IMG/VR virus record: IMGVR_UViG_3300032236_001159
Coordinates: 1 to 64,000 of that record
Source: a virus
Reading direction: 5' to 3' (one strand)
Length of the DNA stretch: 64,000 nt
The translations under genes and the position numbers were made by a program. Shown here one piece after another: positions 24,849 to 30,877 of this stretch (positions are counted from its first letter, which is position 1; every line of letters begins with the position of its first letter). The notes below the pieces were generated by a model, which had not been told where the DNA came from, made no database searches, and saw only the letters and a list, made by a program, of their open reading frames with translations.

Positions 24849-25514
24849 TTATTTGAATTGAGAATCAGGTTCCATTGGAATCCAATAATTCAAATTATAC
24901 TTCTCATTTGTGAATTGGGAAATAAGTTTAGATGAAATCACAACATCATAATTTGTTGGAATAATTTTAAGATTTTCAACTTTAAAATTAAAAACAAATT
25001 CTTTATCAGTTTCTCCCACGGTAATTGAATACTCATTGGAAGTATCAGTTCTCTTATCTCTTACAACCAAACGAATTACACCAGCATCACCAATTACAGA
25101 TAGATCATTTAATTGATATACCGCAGATGCTTTTTTCAATTTATCTAAATGGGAATGATCAAGTTGAAAACAAACATCTTTGGAAGGAAGTTCAATTTCT
25201 TTTTCTGGCGCAGATACAATTACTTCTGGGTCAGCAAAGAAATATTTTACCTTACGTTTTCCTTCCCGAATCACAAGATAATTATCATTTGAGAAATCAA
25301 GTTCTGGATCTTGGTGAAGACTAAGACCATTTAGAAATTGATTCAAATCATAAATTGCAAAGTCTTTTGGGAATTCTTCTTCGACTTCTGCCTGAGCTAA
25401 AATAGTTTTTATTACAGACATAGTGCGAATTTTTGATCCACTTTTCACAAGAATAGATTGATTAATTGACGCAAAGTTTTTAAGAATTGAAATCGTATTT
25501 TCGGATAGTTTCAT
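24849..25514 (-). CDS. gp45: Sliding clamp, gp45
   Basis: Trimeric processivity factor for gp43 and, in T4, the co-activator of late transcription with gp55 and gp33. 221 residues (T4 gp45 228). Seen: MKLSENTISILKNFASINQS with ILVKSGSKIRTMSVIKTIL, the FAIYDLNQFLNGL strand and DFSNDNYLVIREGKRKVKYFFADP, a classic clamp pattern. ATG overlaps the upstream stop by four bases. The unit is driven from the sigma70-like promoter 25844-25872. The late-promoter octamers in this window fit the presence of both gp45 and gp55. Confidence 0.96.
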   Translation of the reverse strand: MKLSENTISILKNFASINQSILVKSGSKIRTMSVIKTILAQAEVEEEFPKDFAIYDLNQFLNGLSLHQDPELDFSNDNYLVIREGKRKVKYFFADPEVIVSAPEKEIELPSKDVCFQLDHSHLDKLKKASAVYQLNDLSVIGDAGVIRLVVRDKRTDTSNEYSITVGETDKEFVFNFKVENLKIIPTNYDVVISSKLISQFTNEKYNLNYWIPMEPDSQFK

Positions 25515-25819
25515 TTAAATTCACCCAATCCATTATCAACACGGCTATAATGCTTATCGAAGTGAAGAAGTAGCATAGCATAGTGAATGACCTTAAGTAA
25601 ATCACGCTTGTTACGCCCGTTTTTCTGTCCATACCTAGACCCATATTTCAAGATGTTCACTTGACAGAAGTCTTGTGCAAGTCCTTTGGAAGCAGCCAAA
25701 TCGATGGTTTGAATATCTTCATATCCTTCTTCACTACCAACATAATGGCTGCCATATGTACTCAGAACATATTCGGTTATATCTTTTAGAATTTGTTCTT
25801 CATTGTACTTCCATTTCAT
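25511..25819 (-). CDS. DUF3310-type protein
   Basis: 102 residues. The C-terminal half, VNILKYGSRYGQKNGRNKRDLLK then VIHYAMLLLHF, matches DUF3310, a small helical family common in phages and often placed near nucleotide or DNA-metabolism genes; its biochemical function is unknown. ATG 25819 is the first gene after promoter 25844-25872 and overlaps gp45 by four bases. No membrane segment or signal. Confidence 0.78.
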   Translation of the reverse strand: MKWKYNEEQILKDITEYVLSTYGSHYVGSEEGYEDIQTIDLAASKGLAQDFCQVNILKYGSRYGQKNGRNKRDLLKVIHYAMLLLHFDKHYSRVDNGLGEFK

Positions 25820-25843
25820 AATCTATAATCAAACTACTTTAAA

Positions 25844-25872
25844 ATAGTAGCACAAAAAACAAGAAAAGTCAA
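25844..25872 (-). promoter_or_regulatory. Sigma70-like promoter for the gp45 unit
   Basis: -35 TTGACT (25867-25872), 17-base spacer, -10 TACTAT (25844-25849). It overlaps the gp46 stop codon and starts the DUF3310-gp45-gp44-gp62-regA unit, which ends at terminator 20291-20307. Confidence 0.65.
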
Positions 25873-27836
25873 GTTAGTATCTTAGAGAATCCTTTCACTT
25901 TTTCAAATGTGATGATTTTATCGAACTTATCAATCAATTCATCTGTCTTATGTGAAATCACAAACACATTAGTATCTTTAATAACATACTTAATAATTTT
26001 TGTGAAATAATCAGTTCCAGTATTATCCAAAGAACTATCAAAAACTTCATCTAAAATTAAAAGATTTGTAGAAACACTATTTTTCATTCTAGCAATTTCT
26101 CTCCAAGTAAAAAGAATTGCTAAGTTAATTCTCATCTTTTCACCTTCACTAAAACTTTCATAACTAAAATCTTCGTGAATAGGAGATTTAATATGCTCCT
26201 TGAATTCATCATCAAGAGTAAAGTTGATATAAAAATCCATCAATTGAAGGTACTTATTGATTTGTTGATTCATCAATGGAATATACTTTTGAATAATCTT
26301 AGATTTAACTCCACCATCCTTCATTAAAAGTTGAGCAAAGTCGAAATAATTTACACTTTCTTTATATTTTGATTTCTTTTTAAAATTATCAATTTGTTCT
26401 TTTTTTAATTTTTCTAATTTTTCGTGTTCGGTACTTCGATTTTTAAGTTGTTCTGTAATGGTTCGAATTTCATTTTCCAAATCCTTGATCTGTCTTCTAG
26501 TAGCATTAATTTTAATATTATTTTGGGAAATATTATTTGTAAGTTTTGAAATTTCTTTCGTGAGGATATTAAATTTACTTTCTCTTTCCTCTTCTTCTTT
26601 AATTGCTTTCTCTAATTCTTCATATCCAGTTTGCATCTCCTTCACTTTATCTTGAGAATCTTTGAGTTTTTTTATTCTAAATTCTTCATCAATGGACTGG
26701 GTACAAGTAGGACATATCGTATTTTCATTAAAGAATTTATGTTCTTCGGCAATTGATGATATTTTTTGACTAATTTTTCCTTTTAAATTTCCAAGTTTAC
26801 GAAGTTTTTCTGCATATCCTGTTATTTCATCTTGCTCTTGAATATATTTACTAAGTGGGTCTTCAAGGGAAGAGTTATATTCCATAAGATCATTGATTTC
26901 GACATCTAAATCGGAAATTTTCCGATTATTAATATCAATCTTTTCATTTCCACGATTTTCCAATTCTTCAATAAATTCAGTCTGCATTAAAATCTTTTCA
27001 TCAATTGATTTTTCGAGCAAAGTGAATTCTTTTATTTTTTCATTTGAATTTCTTATTTTTTCTTTTAAAATGGAATTCATTGTTGAAAATATTTTAATGT
27101 CCAATAAGTCTTCCACAACTTCACGACGATGTGCTGCCGAAAGTTGCATAAAAGGTACAAAGGACGCACTTCCAAGAATTACAATTTGAGTAAATGATTT
27201 ATAATTTAATTTGAGTATTGTATCTTCTAAGTATTTTTGCTGGTCGTTTGATGCTGCTACCTGATTTTGCAAAACACCATCGATCCAAATTTCAAAAATG
27301 TTTGGCTTAATTCCCCTTATGACTTTATATTCTTTATCGGAAATATTAAATTCAACTTCAACTAAACATTCTTTTTCATTGGTCGAATTGATCATTTGAT
27401 TTTTTACAATCTTTCTAAATGCTTTATTGAATAGAACAAAACATAAAGCATCTAACATTGTTGAGTTATGAGACAATATTCCATTAGTATAAAATCTATG
27501 ATTATTTGAATTTACTGTAAAATCATACATATTTTCATAGACATCATACAATTTCACACATTTGACCATTTCTGGCCCATCTTTGGTCATAATATAAGAT
27601 TCATCAGGTATGAGATTTTTTACAAAAATCTCATTATAATTCTCTGTGAATAATATATGATCATCAGCGCATTCCAACACCAAACCATTATAAGTTTCTA
27701 TTCTCCATTTTTGATATGGAATTGTTTTATGGATGTGCGTAACTTCTTCCCATCCGGTATCTGTTTCAATTTCCCAGTCGGTTAGATTTATACTATTGAT
27801 AAATTTTCTATTTACTGTTTCAGAAAGTTCAAACAT
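25869..27836 (-). CDS. gp46: C-intein (124 aa) fused to gp46 C-terminal extein
   Basis: 655 residues in two parts. Residues 1-124 are the C-terminal half of a split intein: block B GLVLECADDH (51-60, Thr of TxxH replaced by Ala), block F MYDFTVNSNNHRFY (103-116) and block G NGILSHN ending at Asn124. From Ser125 the protein is gp46: STMLDALCFVLFNKAF completes the P-loop, with the CPTC zinc hook, coiled coils, FSEGEKMRINLAIL signature and LLILDEVFD Walker B. Splicing joins residue 125 to Lys40 of the 28857-29075 product, giving 571 residues (T4 gp46 560). Its start overlaps the endonuclease ORF by 25 bases. Confidence 0.95.
   Translation of the reverse strand: MFELSETVNRKFINSINLTDWEIETDTGWEEVTHIHKTIPYQKWRIETYNGLVLECADDHILFTENYNEIFVKNLIPDESYIMTKDGPEMVKCVKLYDVYENMYDFTVNSNNHRFYTNGILSHNSTMLDALCFVLFNKAFRKIVKNQMINSTNEKECLVEVEFNISDKEYKVIRGIKPNIFEIWIDGVLQNQVAASNDQQKYLEDTILKLNYKSFTQIVILGSASFVPFMQLSAAHRREVVEDLLDIKIFSTMNSILKEKIRNSNEKIKEFTLLEKSIDEKILMQTEFIEELENRGNEKIDINNRKISDLDVEINDLMEYNSSLEDPLSKYIQEQDEITGYAEKLRKLGNLKGKISQKISSIAEEHKFFNENTICPTCTQSIDEEFRIKKLKDSQDKVKEMQTGYEELEKAIKEEEERESKFNILTKEISKLTNNISQNNIKINATRRQIKDLENEIRTITEQLKNRSTEHEKLEKLKKEQIDNFKKKSKYKESVNYFDFAQLLMKDGGVKSKIIQKYIPLMNQQINKYLQLMDFYINFTLDDEFKEHIKSPIHEDFSYESFSEGEKMRINLAILFTWREIARMKNSVSTNLLILDEVFDSSLDNTGTDYFTKIIKYVIKDTNVFVISHKTDELIDKFDKIITFEKVKGFSKILT
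27465..27836 (-). other. C-intein coding segment (blocks B, F, G)
   Basis: Codes for residues 1-124 of the 25869-27836 protein. It ends with His-Asn followed by Ser+1, the chemistry of a class 1 intein with a serine C-extein nucleophile. The codon boundary Asn (27465-27467) / Ser (27462-27464) was read directly. Confidence 0.93.
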
Positions 27837-28876
27837 TCTTCAATTACCTTTTCTTTTTTAAATTTGTAATCATTTTCATTTACTCTATGAATTAAATATC
27901 CATACTTTTTATAAATTTCATCTCTCTCTTCATCTCTATTTTTATTGCCCCTACCAACCAATCCGTGCCAATAAGTACCATCAAATTCAATTATTTTTTT
28001 GCTATTTGTATCTATAAAATCTGGAAGTAACAATTTATCTAATTTTAATCTCAACTCATTATTTTTTCCAGATTTATCTGGTTTTTTATTTTCGTCAAGT
28101 TCTGCAAAAAATATGCTATCCAAAGAGTTCAAATGTGAAGAAATTTCCCAAAATAACAATTGAGATATTTTTGAAAAATTTGATTTTCTATAAGATTTGT
28201 GCCACTTTTCTTGTCTATCTAGCCATTTCTTTTTTCCATCTTTTTCACCATATTTTTCAATACATTTTTTAAGAGTGAAAGTAGATTGTTCTTGTGATAT
28301 TTTTTCTCTTGCTTCCACTTCATTAAATCCTCTAACAATCCAATATTCAATACATCTTTTTGATGATACTCTTTGGATTTTATTGTTATCTTTTGCTTTT
28401 TTAGATCCTTTGTTGTTGTTTTTTTCTTTCTGTTTTTTTGCCAATTCTATGGATTCTTCTTCATTATAACCTGCTTTTAACCAATATTCTTTTCTAATTG
28501 GTCTTCTTGAATCTCTTTCATAATTTGCCTCACTTTCTGTATAATTTTTACCAGTATTTGGATTTATTTTAGAAGTCCAAAATTCTTTTGAATATGGACT
28601 TACATTTCCTTTCATAGAATTTTTCTTTGATTTAAAATGTGCCTCACCCTCTCCCCATCCACGAGAAATCCAATATTGTTTTGTGTGCTTTCCCATCTCT
28701 GGAAGTGAAAGAAGTTTAGACACATAAGATTTGCATTTTACGACATTTGATGCTTCTGGAACACTTTGAAGTTCTATAAAAAGTTTTTGTCTTAAATCAG
28801 GATGAAGATTTTGTATCTTTTCATCAAGACATTCTTCAATTTTTTCTTGAATGGTTCTACTTCTTTTGTGCGTCAT
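27812..28876 (-). CDS. Vsr-like homing endonuclease nested between intein halves
   Basis: 354 residues with its own AGGGGA Shine-Dalgarno before ATG 28876. Residues about 60-195 carry four degenerate YW/FW modules (68-69, 99-100, 131-132, 178-179; for example EYWLKAGYNEEES and EYWIVRGFNEVEA), likely DNA-binding. Then come EKYGEKDGKKKWLDRQEKW and a C-terminal Vsr/PD-(D/E)XK nuclease core: Asp286, then KKIIEFDGTYWHG with Glu297, Asp299 and His304. It overlaps the N-intein ORF by 20 bases and the C-intein ORF by 25. This is the layout of fractured genes with split inteins plus a Vsr-like endonuclease; predicted to cut intein-less gp46. Confidence 0.9.
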   Translation of the reverse strand: MTHKRSRTIQEKIEECLDEKIQNLHPDLRQKLFIELQSVPEASNVVKCKSYVSKLLSLPEMGKHTKQYWISRGWGEGEAHFKSKKNSMKGNVSPYSKEFWTSKINPNTGKNYTESEANYERDSRRPIRKEYWLKAGYNEEESIELAKKQKEKNNNKGSKKAKDNNKIQRVSSKRCIEYWIVRGFNEVEAREKISQEQSTFTLKKCIEKYGEKDGKKKWLDRQEKWHKSYRKSNFSKISQLLFWEISSHLNSLDSIFFAELDENKKPDKSGKNNELRLKLDKLLLPDFIDTNSKKIIEFDGTYWHGLVGRGNKNRDEERDEIYKKYGYLIHRVNENDYKFKKEKVIEECLNFLKQ

Positions 28877-29075
28877 AAAAGTCCCCTACTGTGGTTTCTA
28901 AAATTTCTCCGGTAATTTTATTTCTTACCTTTATTTTAGTATTTATACAAAAACACTTACCAGAACCATTAGTTCCAACAATCAATGTCGTAGGAACTTC
29001 GGTAAAATTAATTTCTGTTGGTGTATTTCCAGAAGACAAAAAATTTTTAAATTTTATTCGCTTGAATAGTATCAT
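28857..29075 (-). CDS. gp46: gp46 N-terminal extein (40 aa) fused to N-intein (32 aa)
   Basis: 72 residues. Residues 1-40 are the start of gp46 (MILFKRIKFKNFLSSG ... LIVGTNGSGK), ending at the Lys of Walker A. Residues 41-72 are an N-intein: block A CFCINTKIKV, then RNKITGEILETTVGDFYD and a stop. T4 gp46 has the same P-loop followed at once by STML, so the intein cuts exactly between Lys and Ser. The N-intein is very short and contains only block A, an atypical split. It overlaps the preceding 94-residue gene by 29 bases. Only trans-splicing would restore the ATPase. Confidence 0.95.
   Translation of the reverse strand: MILFKRIKFKNFLSSGNTPTEINFTEVPTTLIVGTNGSGKCFCINTKIKVRNKITGEILETTVGDFYDAQKK
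28860..28955 (-). other. N-intein coding segment (block A only)
   Basis: Codes for the 32 residues from Cys41 (codon 28953-28955) to the stop. Cys1 of the intein follows Lys40 (28956-28958) directly. A short N-intein like this is known from a few phage-derived atypically split inteins. Confidence 0.92.
28940..28947 (-). promoter_or_regulatory. Candidate late promoter TATAAATA inside the N-intein
   Basis: Perfect T4-type late octamer on the minus strand, 64 bases upstream of the endonuclease start. It could give late transcription of the endonuclease ORF (and the C-intein-gp46 part) without the gp46 N-part. It lies within coding sequence of an AT-rich genome, so chance occurrence is possible. 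Confidence 0.45.
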
Positions 29076-29331
29076 ATTCTCTTGGTGGTATTACAAAATC
29101 ATTTGAATTAATTATAACATAATTGTACCCATACATCTCACATGTTTTTATTACTAGATGATCATCAACTTCAACTACATCCATTTCTGGATAATCTTCC
29201 GCTTCTAATAGTCCAGAATAACGTTCAGCATCATCAATATCTTCGAAAAGATACAAAGCTCTTTCACCATCTTCGTCAATTACGGAATATGCTCCCTCAT
29301 CTTCTTTTCCTTTAATCGTAAGTATATACAT
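29047..29331 (-). CDS. Conserved cyanophage-type hypothetical protein, 94 residues
   Basis: 94 residues, acidic. MYILTIKGKEDEGAYSVIDED then ALYLFEDIDDAERYSGLLEAEDYPEM resembles DUF3110-like proteins found between gp47 and gp46 in T4-like marine phages. ATG 29331 overlaps the gp47 stop by one base, and its end overlaps gp46 N-part by 29 bases, so it is co-translated with the nuclease genes. It may be an accessory to gp46/gp47; no function is known. Confidence 0.78.
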   Translation of the reverse strand: MYILTIKGKEDEGAYSVIDEDGERALYLFEDIDDAERYSGLLEAEDYPEMDVVEVDDHLVIKTCEMYGYNYVIINSNDFVIPPREYDTIQANKI

Positions 29332-30374
29332 CAGGTTGCTTCCAATGCTTCTTTATATACATCTCGAAGTAGTTTTTTGATTATAGTTTTATCCAAACCA
29401 AATTCTGCCTCTTCTACATATTTATCTAAAATGGATAAAGTATCTTCGGCAGATATTTCTTCACAATCCACACTTTCATCATCAATATCAACAATTTCTA
29501 CAACTTTCAAATCCAAAGGTGAAGATTTTACAATTTCATCTAAAAATTTATCAAAATTTAATTGATTAGTTTTTTTTCTGACTATAATTTTTACAATTTT
29601 ATCTTTTAAAATTGAACAATCTATTTTTTTCGCATCACTATCTTCATAGTAGATTCTTTCAAATATATTGTATGGATTTTTAAAGTATTCTAATTCATAA
29701 GTATTGGTATCAAAAATATGAAATCCTCTAGTATCATCCACATCACTCCAAAACATTTGATAAGGATTTCCGAGGTAAAATACTTTTCCATTATCAGATT
29801 TAGTATGATAATGTCCGGTAAATACTCTATCAAATTTTTCAAATTTTTCAGTAGACAATCCATCAGTCATAATATGACCGGGATATGCAGAAAATCCATT
29901 CAACTCCAAATGACCAAAAACAACTTTTGCTTTGGTTTCTTGAATTAAATTAAAAGTTTCTTCTTCATTATCAGAACAAATCCAAGGAAGAACCAAAGAA
30001 TTCATTCCTCCAATACAAATTTCTGTTGGTCTTGAAATTGGTATTACATTATCATATTGTCTCAATAATCCATCAACTGCATTTACTTCATTAGAATTTT
30101 TATAATAAGAATCGTGATTTCCTACTATATTATAAACCGTAATTCCTAATTTTTCAAATCGGTCATAAACATTCTTCTTTGCCCATTCTAATGCCCAATA
30201 ATCAACACCTTTGCGATTATCAAAAGCATCTCCCAAATGAACTACTGTTTTGATTTTTCTTTTTTCTAATGTAGGAAAAAATACTTCATCATAAAATTTA
30301 GCAAAGTAGTCATGAAAAGATTTATTTGCTTTCTTGAATCCATAGTGAGTGTCTGTTACAAGTCCGAGTTTCAT
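29331..30374 (-). CDS. gp47: Recombination nuclease subunit gp47 (Mre11-like)
   Basis: Nuclease partner of gp46; together they process DNA ends for recombination-dependent replication, like Mre11/Rad50. 347 residues (T4 gp47 339). Seen: all calcineurin-like phosphoesterase motifs, GLVTDTHYGF, VVHLGDAFDNRK, YNIVGNHDSYY, VVFGHLEL and FTGHYHTKSD. It overlaps the gp55 stop by four bases. Since gp46 here is split by an intein, the complex depends on trans-splicing. Confidence 0.96.
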   Translation of the reverse strand: MKLGLVTDTHYGFKKANKSFHDYFAKFYDEVFFPTLEKRKIKTVVHLGDAFDNRKGVDYWALEWAKKNVYDRFEKLGITVYNIVGNHDSYYKNSNEVNAVDGLLRQYDNVIPISRPTEICIGGMNSLVLPWICSDNEEETFNLIQETKAKVVFGHLELNGFSAYPGHIMTDGLSTEKFEKFDRVFTGHYHTKSDNGKVFYLGNPYQMFWSDVDDTRGFHIFDTNTYELEYFKNPYNIFERIYYEDSDAKKIDCSILKDKIVKIIVRKKTNQLNFDKFLDEIVKSSPLDLKVVEIVDIDDESVDCEEISAEDTLSILDKYVEEAEFGLDKTIIKKLLRDVYKEALEAT

Positions 30375-30877
30375 TGATTCATCTTAATATGCACATTATC
30401 TTTAATTGTATTGTAGTCAGAATTAAATCCGGTTTCATCTGATGTGAACACTTCTTCAAATCCACTACGTTCAATTAATTTATCTTTAATTTCCATTTGC
30501 CTCTTTTCTCTTTGAATTCTGCGAAGAAAGGCATAATAAACAATTTGAGTAAAATAAGCAAATGGATTGGTTCTTTCTACATCAAAATTATGAATATATT
30601 GAACTGCATTTTCTACTCCATCACTTATCATATCTTCACGAAACATATAATTTACAAAATTTGGTCTATATGATAAGTGAGTAGCAATTTTTAAAAAACA
30701 ATCTCCAATATAATTTGGTATTTTTGGTTTTCCTTCCCAAGGTCCATTATTTGGAGGATACTTATCATATTTTTCAAAATATTTTTCCTTTGCGATATCA
30801 ATTTTCATTTTATATGCAATTAAAGCATCGTGAAAATCTTTATTATTTACATAATGTGGATTTTTTCTTTCTTTCAT
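30371..30877 (-). CDS. gp55: Late sigma factor gp55
   Basis: 168 residues (T4 gp55 185). It recruits host RNA polymerase to late promoters with the gp45 clamp. Seen: FLKIATHLSYRPNFVNYMFREDMISDGVENAVQYI, a sigma region 2-like helix pattern with a conserved IHNFD..RTNPFAYFTQIVYYAFLRRI block. Its promoter region has a good sigma70-like element (30904-30932), so host polymerase makes it early, and its product should then act at the NATAAATA sites found in this window. Confidence 0.93.
   Translation of the reverse strand: MKERKNPHYVNNKDFHDALIAYKMKIDIAKEKYFEKYDKYPPNNGPWEGKPKIPNYIGDCFLKIATHLSYRPNFVNYMFREDMISDGVENAVQYIHNFDVERTNPFAYFTQIVYYAFLRRIQREKRQMEIKDKLIERSGFEEVFTSDETGFNSDYNTIKDNVHIKMNQ

What the first reader, a model, noticed from the sequence alone, without database searches (positions are those of the whole stretch)
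25869..29075. gp46 is split by an atypical trans-splicing intein inserted in its P-loop
Seen: ORF 28857-29075 reads gp46 up to GTNGSGK and then changes to an intein start (CFCINTKIKV ...) and stops after 32 intein residues. ORF 25869-27836 begins with 124 intein residues ending NGILSHN and then continues STMLDALCF, the rest of the P-loop. Joined, the exteins give a 571-residue gp46, like T4 (560). Known: split inteins occur in phage replication genes (gp41, nrdA, nrdJ), and a few have very short N-parts. Inference: the Rad50-like ATPase exists only after trans-splicing; without it the Walker A motif is destroyed. The split lies between blocks A and B, not at the usual endonuclease position. 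An N-part this short at a gp46 P-loop may be an undescribed split intein.
Basis: partly seen in the sequence, partly recalled or inferred. Interest (0 to 1): 0.95.

Follow-up and report, generated by a model that had tools for sequence, protein, structure and literature searches.

The report
Split intein interrupting phage repair ATPase
A T4-like phage's DNA-repair ATPase gene (gp46) is broken in its ATP-binding loop by a mobile element made of a self-joining split intein with a homing-endonuclease gene wedged between the halves, so the working enzyme should exist only after the two protein pieces splice together; this is a known type of arrangement at a gene and site for which I found no earlier report.

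Summary
In detail: gp46 is encoded in two pieces (40 + 531 = 571 residues) interrupted between Lys and Ser of the Walker A motif by a 32-residue IntN and a 124-residue IntC. Together this is the "fractured gene" arrangement.

It is not an assembly error. Six other IMG/VR contigs carry the same three-ORF layout with the same 1239-nt spacing, five of them clearly diverged, and all three parts are under purifying selection. About 70 relatives carry intact gp46. A twin locus (L002) has a nearly identical intein (1 difference in about 1.5 kb) inside exteins that fall to 64-93%: a homing signature.

The short N-part is not new in kind (AceL-TerL 25, GOS-TerL 37 residues), and Lys|Ser/Thr P-loop insertion is classic. 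Not found reported: gp46 as host, its abundance (about 35 contigs, two gp46 clades), a conserved 25-nt endonuclease/IntC overlap, a GIY-YIG-like nuclease swap, and sister elements in gp41, TerL and ClpB-like P-loops. Splicing and homing are inferred, not shown.

The parts
28956..29075 (-). N-extein: gp46 residues 1-40, ending in the first part of Walker A (GTNGSGK)
   Evidence: PHROG 77 profile positions 295-333
28857..28955 (-). IntN of the split intein, 32 residues starting with Cys1, plus stop; blocks A and N2 and the first helix
   Evidence: aligns with the N-part of the contiguous VAP7 TerL intein; AF2 pLDDT about 93
27812..28876 (-). Intervening homing endonuclease gene, 354 aa: N-terminal repeat module (YWxxRGxxExEA) and a C-terminal Vsr/DUF559/EDxHD-type nuclease domain; overlaps IntN by 20 nt and IntC by 25 nt
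   Evidence: Pfam DUF559 above its cut-off; top structural match the I-Bth0305I catalytic domain 3r3p, probability 1.00, TM 0.70 of target, but E 0.11; purifying selection
27465..27836 (-). IntC of the split intein, 124 residues with its own ATG, block B (CADDH) and block F/G ending ...HRFYTNGILSHN
   Evidence: AF2 model matches VidaL (E 7e-9, rmsd 1.1) and gp41-1 (E 2e-7)
25869..27464 (-). C-extein: gp46 residues 41-571, starting with Ser+1 (STMLDALCF), plus stop
   Evidence: PHROG 77 E 1e-156, profile positions 334-952
29331..30374 (-). gp47 (Mre11/SbcD-like nuclease), partner of gp46, intact
   Evidence: PHROG 100 E 4e-108, Pfam Metallophos

Best explanation
A mobile 'fractured-gene' element sits in gp46 between Lys and Ser of Walker A. 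gp46-N/IntN, the endonuclease, and IntC/gp46-C are translated as three overlapping, probably translationally coupled ORFs. The 32-residue IntN docks on the 124-residue IntC to form a HINT domain. Cys1 and Ser+1 act as nucleophiles and the terminal Asn cyclises, giving a scarless 571-residue Rad50-like ATPase with a restored GTNGSGKS P-loop. The free endonuclease is expected to recognise and cut intein-less gp46 P-loop DNA in co-infecting phages, and recombination repair then copies the element across. Shown here: anatomy, homology, conservation, selection, and a horizontal-transfer signature. Inferred: splicing, coupling, DNA target and homing.
For: Anatomy. Same three-ORF layout at the same codon in L002, L003, L083-L086 with constant 1239-nt start-to-start spacing and 25-nt endonuclease/IntC overlap, also a 25-nt overlap in L099 and in a second gp46 clade; GIY-YIG-type relatives have 26-29 nt. 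Pooled pN/pS 0.20 (IntN), 0.35 (endonuclease), 0.21 (IntC). About 70 other gp46 loci are uninterrupted at GK|ST. A contiguous relative in Vibrio phage VAP7 TerL, at the same Lys|Thr of its P-loop, contains both halves joined by a linker. The initiating Met of IntC is nearly invariant in split forms and absent from that contiguous form. AF2 with nonsense between the halves gives pLDDT about 93 on both; Foldseek best hits VidaL and gp41-1. Endonuclease closest fold I-Bth0305I. Window versus L002: intein 99.9% identical, exteins and neighbours 64-93%.
Against: No experiment. Foldseek alignments are too short to span both halves and so cover IntC only; IntN docking is not independently measured. 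The endonuclease fold match has a weak E-value (0.11) and catalytic residues were not checked one by one. The window-L002 identity could in part reflect metagenome chimerism. Separate initiation versus frameshifting is judged from the conserved Met and weak Shine-Dalgarno-like upstream bases, not from data.
Confidence: 0.92

Rival explanations
1. A contiguous maxi-intein with an internal endonuclease is made by two ribosomal frameshifts, so splicing is in cis rather than in trans.
For: ORFs overlap by 17-41 nt and 25-29 nt in the gp46 alleles measured (L123 excepted for the first overlap, where the first Met lies downstream), and IntN and IntC are in the same frame relative to each other in most.
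Against: Each downstream ORF keeps its own Met; the IntC Met is nearly invariant in split alleles but absent from the contiguous VAP7 intein. In L097, L098, L100 and L112 IntN and IntC are not in one frame. Some gp41 elements lack the endonuclease and still have separate halves. No slippery site was specifically looked for.
Confidence: 0.05
2. Assembly or sequencing error: the gene is really one open frame or the contig is chimeric.
For: The record is a metagenomic virus contig.
Against: Diverged alleles from other contigs share the same codon position, spacing and overlaps, and there are about 22 more contigs in a second gp46 clade. All parts show purifying selection.
Confidence: 0.01
3. Degenerate, non-splicing remnant: gp46 is inactivated in this phage and host or co-infecting functions compensate.
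For: Splicing was not tested; loss of gp46 would not leave an obvious signature in one genome.
Against: Exteins and both intein halves evolve under purifying selection (pooled pN/pS 0.14-0.30), and Cys1, block B His and the terminal His-Asn are conserved.
Confidence: 0.02
4. The interruption is a group I or II intron rather than a protein-level element.
For: T4-like phages often carry introns with endonuclease genes.
Against: No Rfam match in 25000-30500; both flanks encode recognisable intein sequence in frame with the exteins.
Confidence: 0.005

Closest known systems
Fractured genes with split inteins and intervening Vsr-like/EDxHD homing endonuclease (Dassa et al. 2009, doi 10.1093/nar/gkp095; not held here, known through citations)
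   Same: Split-intein halves flank a separate endonuclease ORF; endonuclease fold nearest to I-Bth0305I, described as EDxHD (PMC3943268), a family for which PMC12350094 cites Dassa 2009
   Different: Host gene gp46 and its P-loop; I could not read the 2009 host list, so absence there is not shown
AceL-TerL and GOS-TerL atypical split inteins (IntN 25 and 37 residues; PMC11766414, PMC13014065)
   Same: Short IntN ending after the first helix (S2 position), long IntC; AceL-TerL is cysteine-dependent as this one should be
   Different: Inserted in gp46 at Walker A with Ser+1. Many TerL genes seen here have another intein at a second site ending HN|C (HN|CEFLGS), which from memory is the AceL-TerL site
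Contiguous P-loop inteins in TerL of Ackermannviridae (e.g. Vibrio phage VAP7, Salmonella phage Marshall)
   Same: VAP7: 48% identical IntC, same IntN pattern, same Lys|Ser/Thr P-loop position; Marshall is annotated as intein-containing TerL
   Different: One chain, no endonuclease, host TerL
VidaL and gp41-1 split inteins (PDB 6vgv, 6qaz)
   Same: Closest solved folds to the modelled IntC
   Different: VidaL IntN is 16 residues (PMC13014065); gp41-1 is canonically split (own knowledge)
Pseudomonas phage MIJ3 split DNA polymerase B intein with an endonuclease ORF (PMC6892783)
   Same: Endonuclease ORF between split halves in a cultured phage
   Different: Different host gene and intein; authors call the endonuclease HNH

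Membership tests
Split intein (HINT, class 1) | N-terminal nucleophile Cys/Ser at position 1 | tested here: met
   Cys1 in window and all split P-loop alleles listed
Split intein (HINT, class 1) | Block B His and C-terminal His-Asn followed by Ser/Thr/Cys +1 | tested here: met
   CADDH and GILSHN|S; His433, His496 and Asn497 invariant in 27 aligned sequences
Split intein (HINT, class 1) | HINT fold | tested here: met
   AF2 pLDDT about 93 in IntC; VidaL E 7e-9, gp41-1 E 2e-7; IntN docking not separately tested
Split intein (HINT, class 1) | Ligates exteins in trans | not testable with these tools
   needs co-expression
Atypically split intein, S2 position | IntN of about 15-37 residues ending after the first helix | tested here: met
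   32 residues in the window, 32-39 in gp46 relatives; range from PMC13014065
Fractured gene | Separate endonuclease ORF between the intein halves | tested here: met
   ORF 27812-28876, conserved in relatives
EDxHD (I-Bth0305I/Vsr-like) homing endonuclease | Vsr-like nuclease fold | tested here: inconclusive
   Top fold hit 3r3p, probability 1.00, TM 0.70, Vsr rank 6, but no hit at E <= 0.001; DUF559 above Pfam cut-off; profile hit 3hrl E 0.0065
EDxHD (I-Bth0305I/Vsr-like) homing endonuclease | Catalytic EDxHD residues and specific DNA cleavage | not tested
   IIEFDGxYWH motif seen; residues not mapped onto the structure
gp46/SbcC-type Rad50 ATPase | Full-length gp46 profile when exteins are joined | tested here: met
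   PHROG 77 positions 295-333 then 334-952

The most novel reading that the evidence does not exclude
A single family of split-intein/endonuclease elements specialises in the Walker A codon stretch itself (GK|S/T) and has colonised several unrelated phage ATPases (two gp46 clades, gp41 helicase, TerL, a ClpB-like AAA+), because the P-loop DNA is the one target that stays similar between them. It keeps an overlapping three-ORF layout and swaps nuclease domains (Vsr-like to GIY-YIG-like) under a shared DNA-binding module.
Probability: 0.4. Interest if true: 0.7.

Novelty: new member of a known kind. Interest (0 to 1): 0.52.

Why it matters
It makes an essential-type recombination ATPase of an environmental phage group depend on protein trans-splicing, extends fractured genes to gp46, and supplies about 35 natural short-IntN split inteins at a P-loop for protein chemistry. 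The mixture of intein-plus, intein-minus, nuclease-swapped and endonuclease-less alleles gives a natural series for testing the homing cycle and how a homing enzyme can move between different ATPase genes.

Tried and rejected
Group I/II intron: no Rfam hit. Second intact gp46 in the record: none with the C-extein as query. Intein in cultured-phage gp46: the INPHARED IntC hits whose rows were listed are nearly all TerL, and no gp46 appeared; not every one of the 341 records was listed. Contiguous TerL intein as a bait in IMG/VR found only VAP7 itself. Dassa 2009 is not held. Literature searches for 'split intein' with gp46: none; the wider search with intein, Rad50 and SbcC listed 12 of 70 papers, and no title or abstract shown reported a gp46 intein.

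Full report
WHAT IS THERE. On the minus strand the order is gp47 (29331-30374), a 94-residue ORF (29047-29331), and then gp46 in fractured form. ORF 28857-29075 is gp46 residues 1-40 ending GTNGSGK, followed by 32 intein residues and a stop. ORF 27812-28876 encodes 354 residues of an endonuclease-like protein in another frame. ORF 25869-27836 encodes 124 intein residues ending GILSHN and then gp46 residues 41-571 starting STMLDALCF. The N-extein ends at PHROG 77 position 333 and the C-extein begins at 334, so the two exteins join without loss.

IT IS AN INTEIN. By sequence alone the IntC finds gp41-1 (E 7e-5), NrdJ-1 and VidaL in the PDB and matches 341 cultured-phage records, mostly TerL, the best 48% identical. 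The closest, in Vibrio phage VAP7 TerL, is a contiguous intein inserted at RQSGK|TTVV, the same Lys|Thr step of a Walker A motif. Its first 32 residues (CVDHDTMINIRHKVTGEIKNISIGDFHHMKEE) match the window IntN (CFCINTKIKVRNKITGEILETTVGDFYDAQKK), and after a linker it continues as the window IntC. The break in gp46 therefore falls in that linker. For a structural test I translated Cys1 to Asn with the out-of-frame endonuclease region read as nonsense. AF2 gave pLDDT about 93 for roughly residues 1-35 and 385-497 and low values between. The best PDB matches are VidaL (E 7e-9, rmsd 1.1) and gp41-1 (E 2e-7). These alignments are too short to span both halves, so docking of IntN is supported by homology rather than measured.

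IT IS CONSERVED, NOT AN ERROR. Six other IMG/VR contigs carry the same three ORFs at the same codon (L002, L003, L083-L086; L085 is nearly the same as L003). In all seven, window included, the distance from the gp46 start to the IntC start is 1239 nt and the endonuclease/IntC overlap is 25 nt. The same 25-nt overlap recurs in L099 and in all ten alleles measured of a second, deeply diverged gp46 clade inserted at GSRNGTGK|TTIINAL. C-exteins of both clades start at PHROG 77 position 334. Pooled pN/pS is 0.20 for IntN, 0.35 for the endonuclease and 0.21 for IntC, with most overlapping bases left out. About 70 related gp46 loci are uninterrupted at GK|ST, including L016, L018, L019 and L024, whose exteins closely resemble the window's.

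IT MOVES. Between the window and L002 the intein region has one difference in about 1.5 kb. The flanking exteins are 93% and 92% identical next to the insertion and fall to 64% in the middle of gp46 and 79% in distal gp47. Similarly, L083 and L084 have IntN dS 0.07 and endonuclease dS 0.13 against 1.6 in the adjacent C-extein (a 132-nt stretch, so rough). This is the pattern of homing with co-conversion, although chimeric assembly of L002 cannot be excluded from sequence alone. The tree of IntN+IntC puts each gp46 clade and the gp41 group on one branch, which suggests that moves between genes are rare compared with moves between alleles.

THE ENDONUCLEASE. Pfam DUF559 passes its cut-off. The AF2 model is moderate (mean pLDDT 66), better in the C-terminal domain. 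Its best PDB match is the catalytic domain of I-Bth0305I (probability 1.00, TM 0.70 of target, E 0.11), with Vsr at rank 6. I-Bth0305I is the example of the EDxHD homing family (PMC3943268), for which PMC12350094 cites Dassa et al. 2009, 'Fractured genes'. In L097, L098 and L100 the N-terminal module is retained but the C-terminal nuclease is replaced by one resembling GIY-YIG/T5orf172; the Pfam match, run on L097 and L100, is below the cut-off. L112 shows the same retained N-terminal match up to residue 237 only. L101 looks like L097 with the endonuclease internally deleted to 79 residues. L102 and L103 (gp41) have no endonuclease at all.

RELATED ELEMENTS. The same kind of element sits in the P-loop of gp41-type helicases (GETNxGK|S), TerL (RQxGK|T/S) and a ClpB-like AAA+ (GPTGVGK|TMLAKLLAEQ, L168), with examples checked by PHROG or Pfam. 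A huge-phage record (LR756500) has a fractured TerL with the same arrangement. Pseudomonas phage Deifobo has a fractured UvsX split inside its P-loop (GESG|SGKS) with a related endonuclease. In the window's own record gp41 and UvsX have uninterrupted P-loops and TerL is a single ORF, and only one such element was found.

HOW IT WORKS. The most likely mechanism is coupled translation of three overlapping ORFs, association of IntN with IntC, class-1 protein splicing (Cys1, Ser+1, Asn cyclisation), and release of intact gp46. The endonuclease acts on intein-less alleles at the DNA level. Until splicing, neither gp46 fragment holds a complete Walker A, so ATPase activity should depend on splicing. 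The anatomy and evolution are shown; splicing, coupling and homing are inferred.

NOVELTY. Natural atypical split inteins with IntN of 15-37 residues are established, and the split after the first helix is that of AceL-TerL and GOS-TerL (PMC13014065, PMC11766414). Insertion between Lys and Thr of a P-loop is called 'classic' (PMC5050341). A split intein with an endonuclease ORF between its halves has been reported in a cultured phage (PMC6892783). No paper in the held library joined 'split intein' with gp46, and the wider search showed none in the titles and abstracts listed, but the 2009 paper itself was not available. I therefore class this as a new member of a known kind, with real added interest in its abundance, the fixed overlaps, the nuclease swap and the spread over P-loop genes.

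Noticed in passing
L097:2214-3269, L098, L100:2974-4026, L112: Endonuclease between the gp46 intein halves keeps the N-terminal module but carries a GIY-YIG/T5orf172-like nuclease domain in place of the Vsr-like one (Pfam match below cut-off; in L112 inferred from the truncated match).
   Followed up: partly
L101:3585-4157: Same gp46 locus as L097 but with the endonuclease ORF cut internally to 79 residues; could be decay after fixation or an assembly collapse.
   Followed up: no
L168:2667-4990: Fractured split intein in the P-loop of a ClpB-like AAA+ ATP-dependent protease of a phage.
   Followed up: partly
L102, L103 (gp41 helicase): P-loop split intein halves about 100 nt apart with no endonuclease gene between them.
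   Followed up: no
L117, L118, L135, L148, L159, L160: TerL genes carrying two inteins at different sites, one in the P-loop and one ending HN|C further downstream.
   Followed up: no
L188:431-3437 (Pseudomonas phage Deifobo): UvsX recombinase fractured inside its P-loop (GESG|SGKS) with a very short IntN (about 17 residues) and a related endonuclease; the N-part and endonuclease are annotated as hypothetical proteins.
   Followed up: partly
L003:444-1199, L085, L083:1964-2512, L086:1961-2518, L002:5081-5731: Other free-standing endonuclease-like genes (GIY-YIG-like or HNH-like by eye) lie around gp47/gp46 in related phages but are absent from the window at those places.
   Followed up: no
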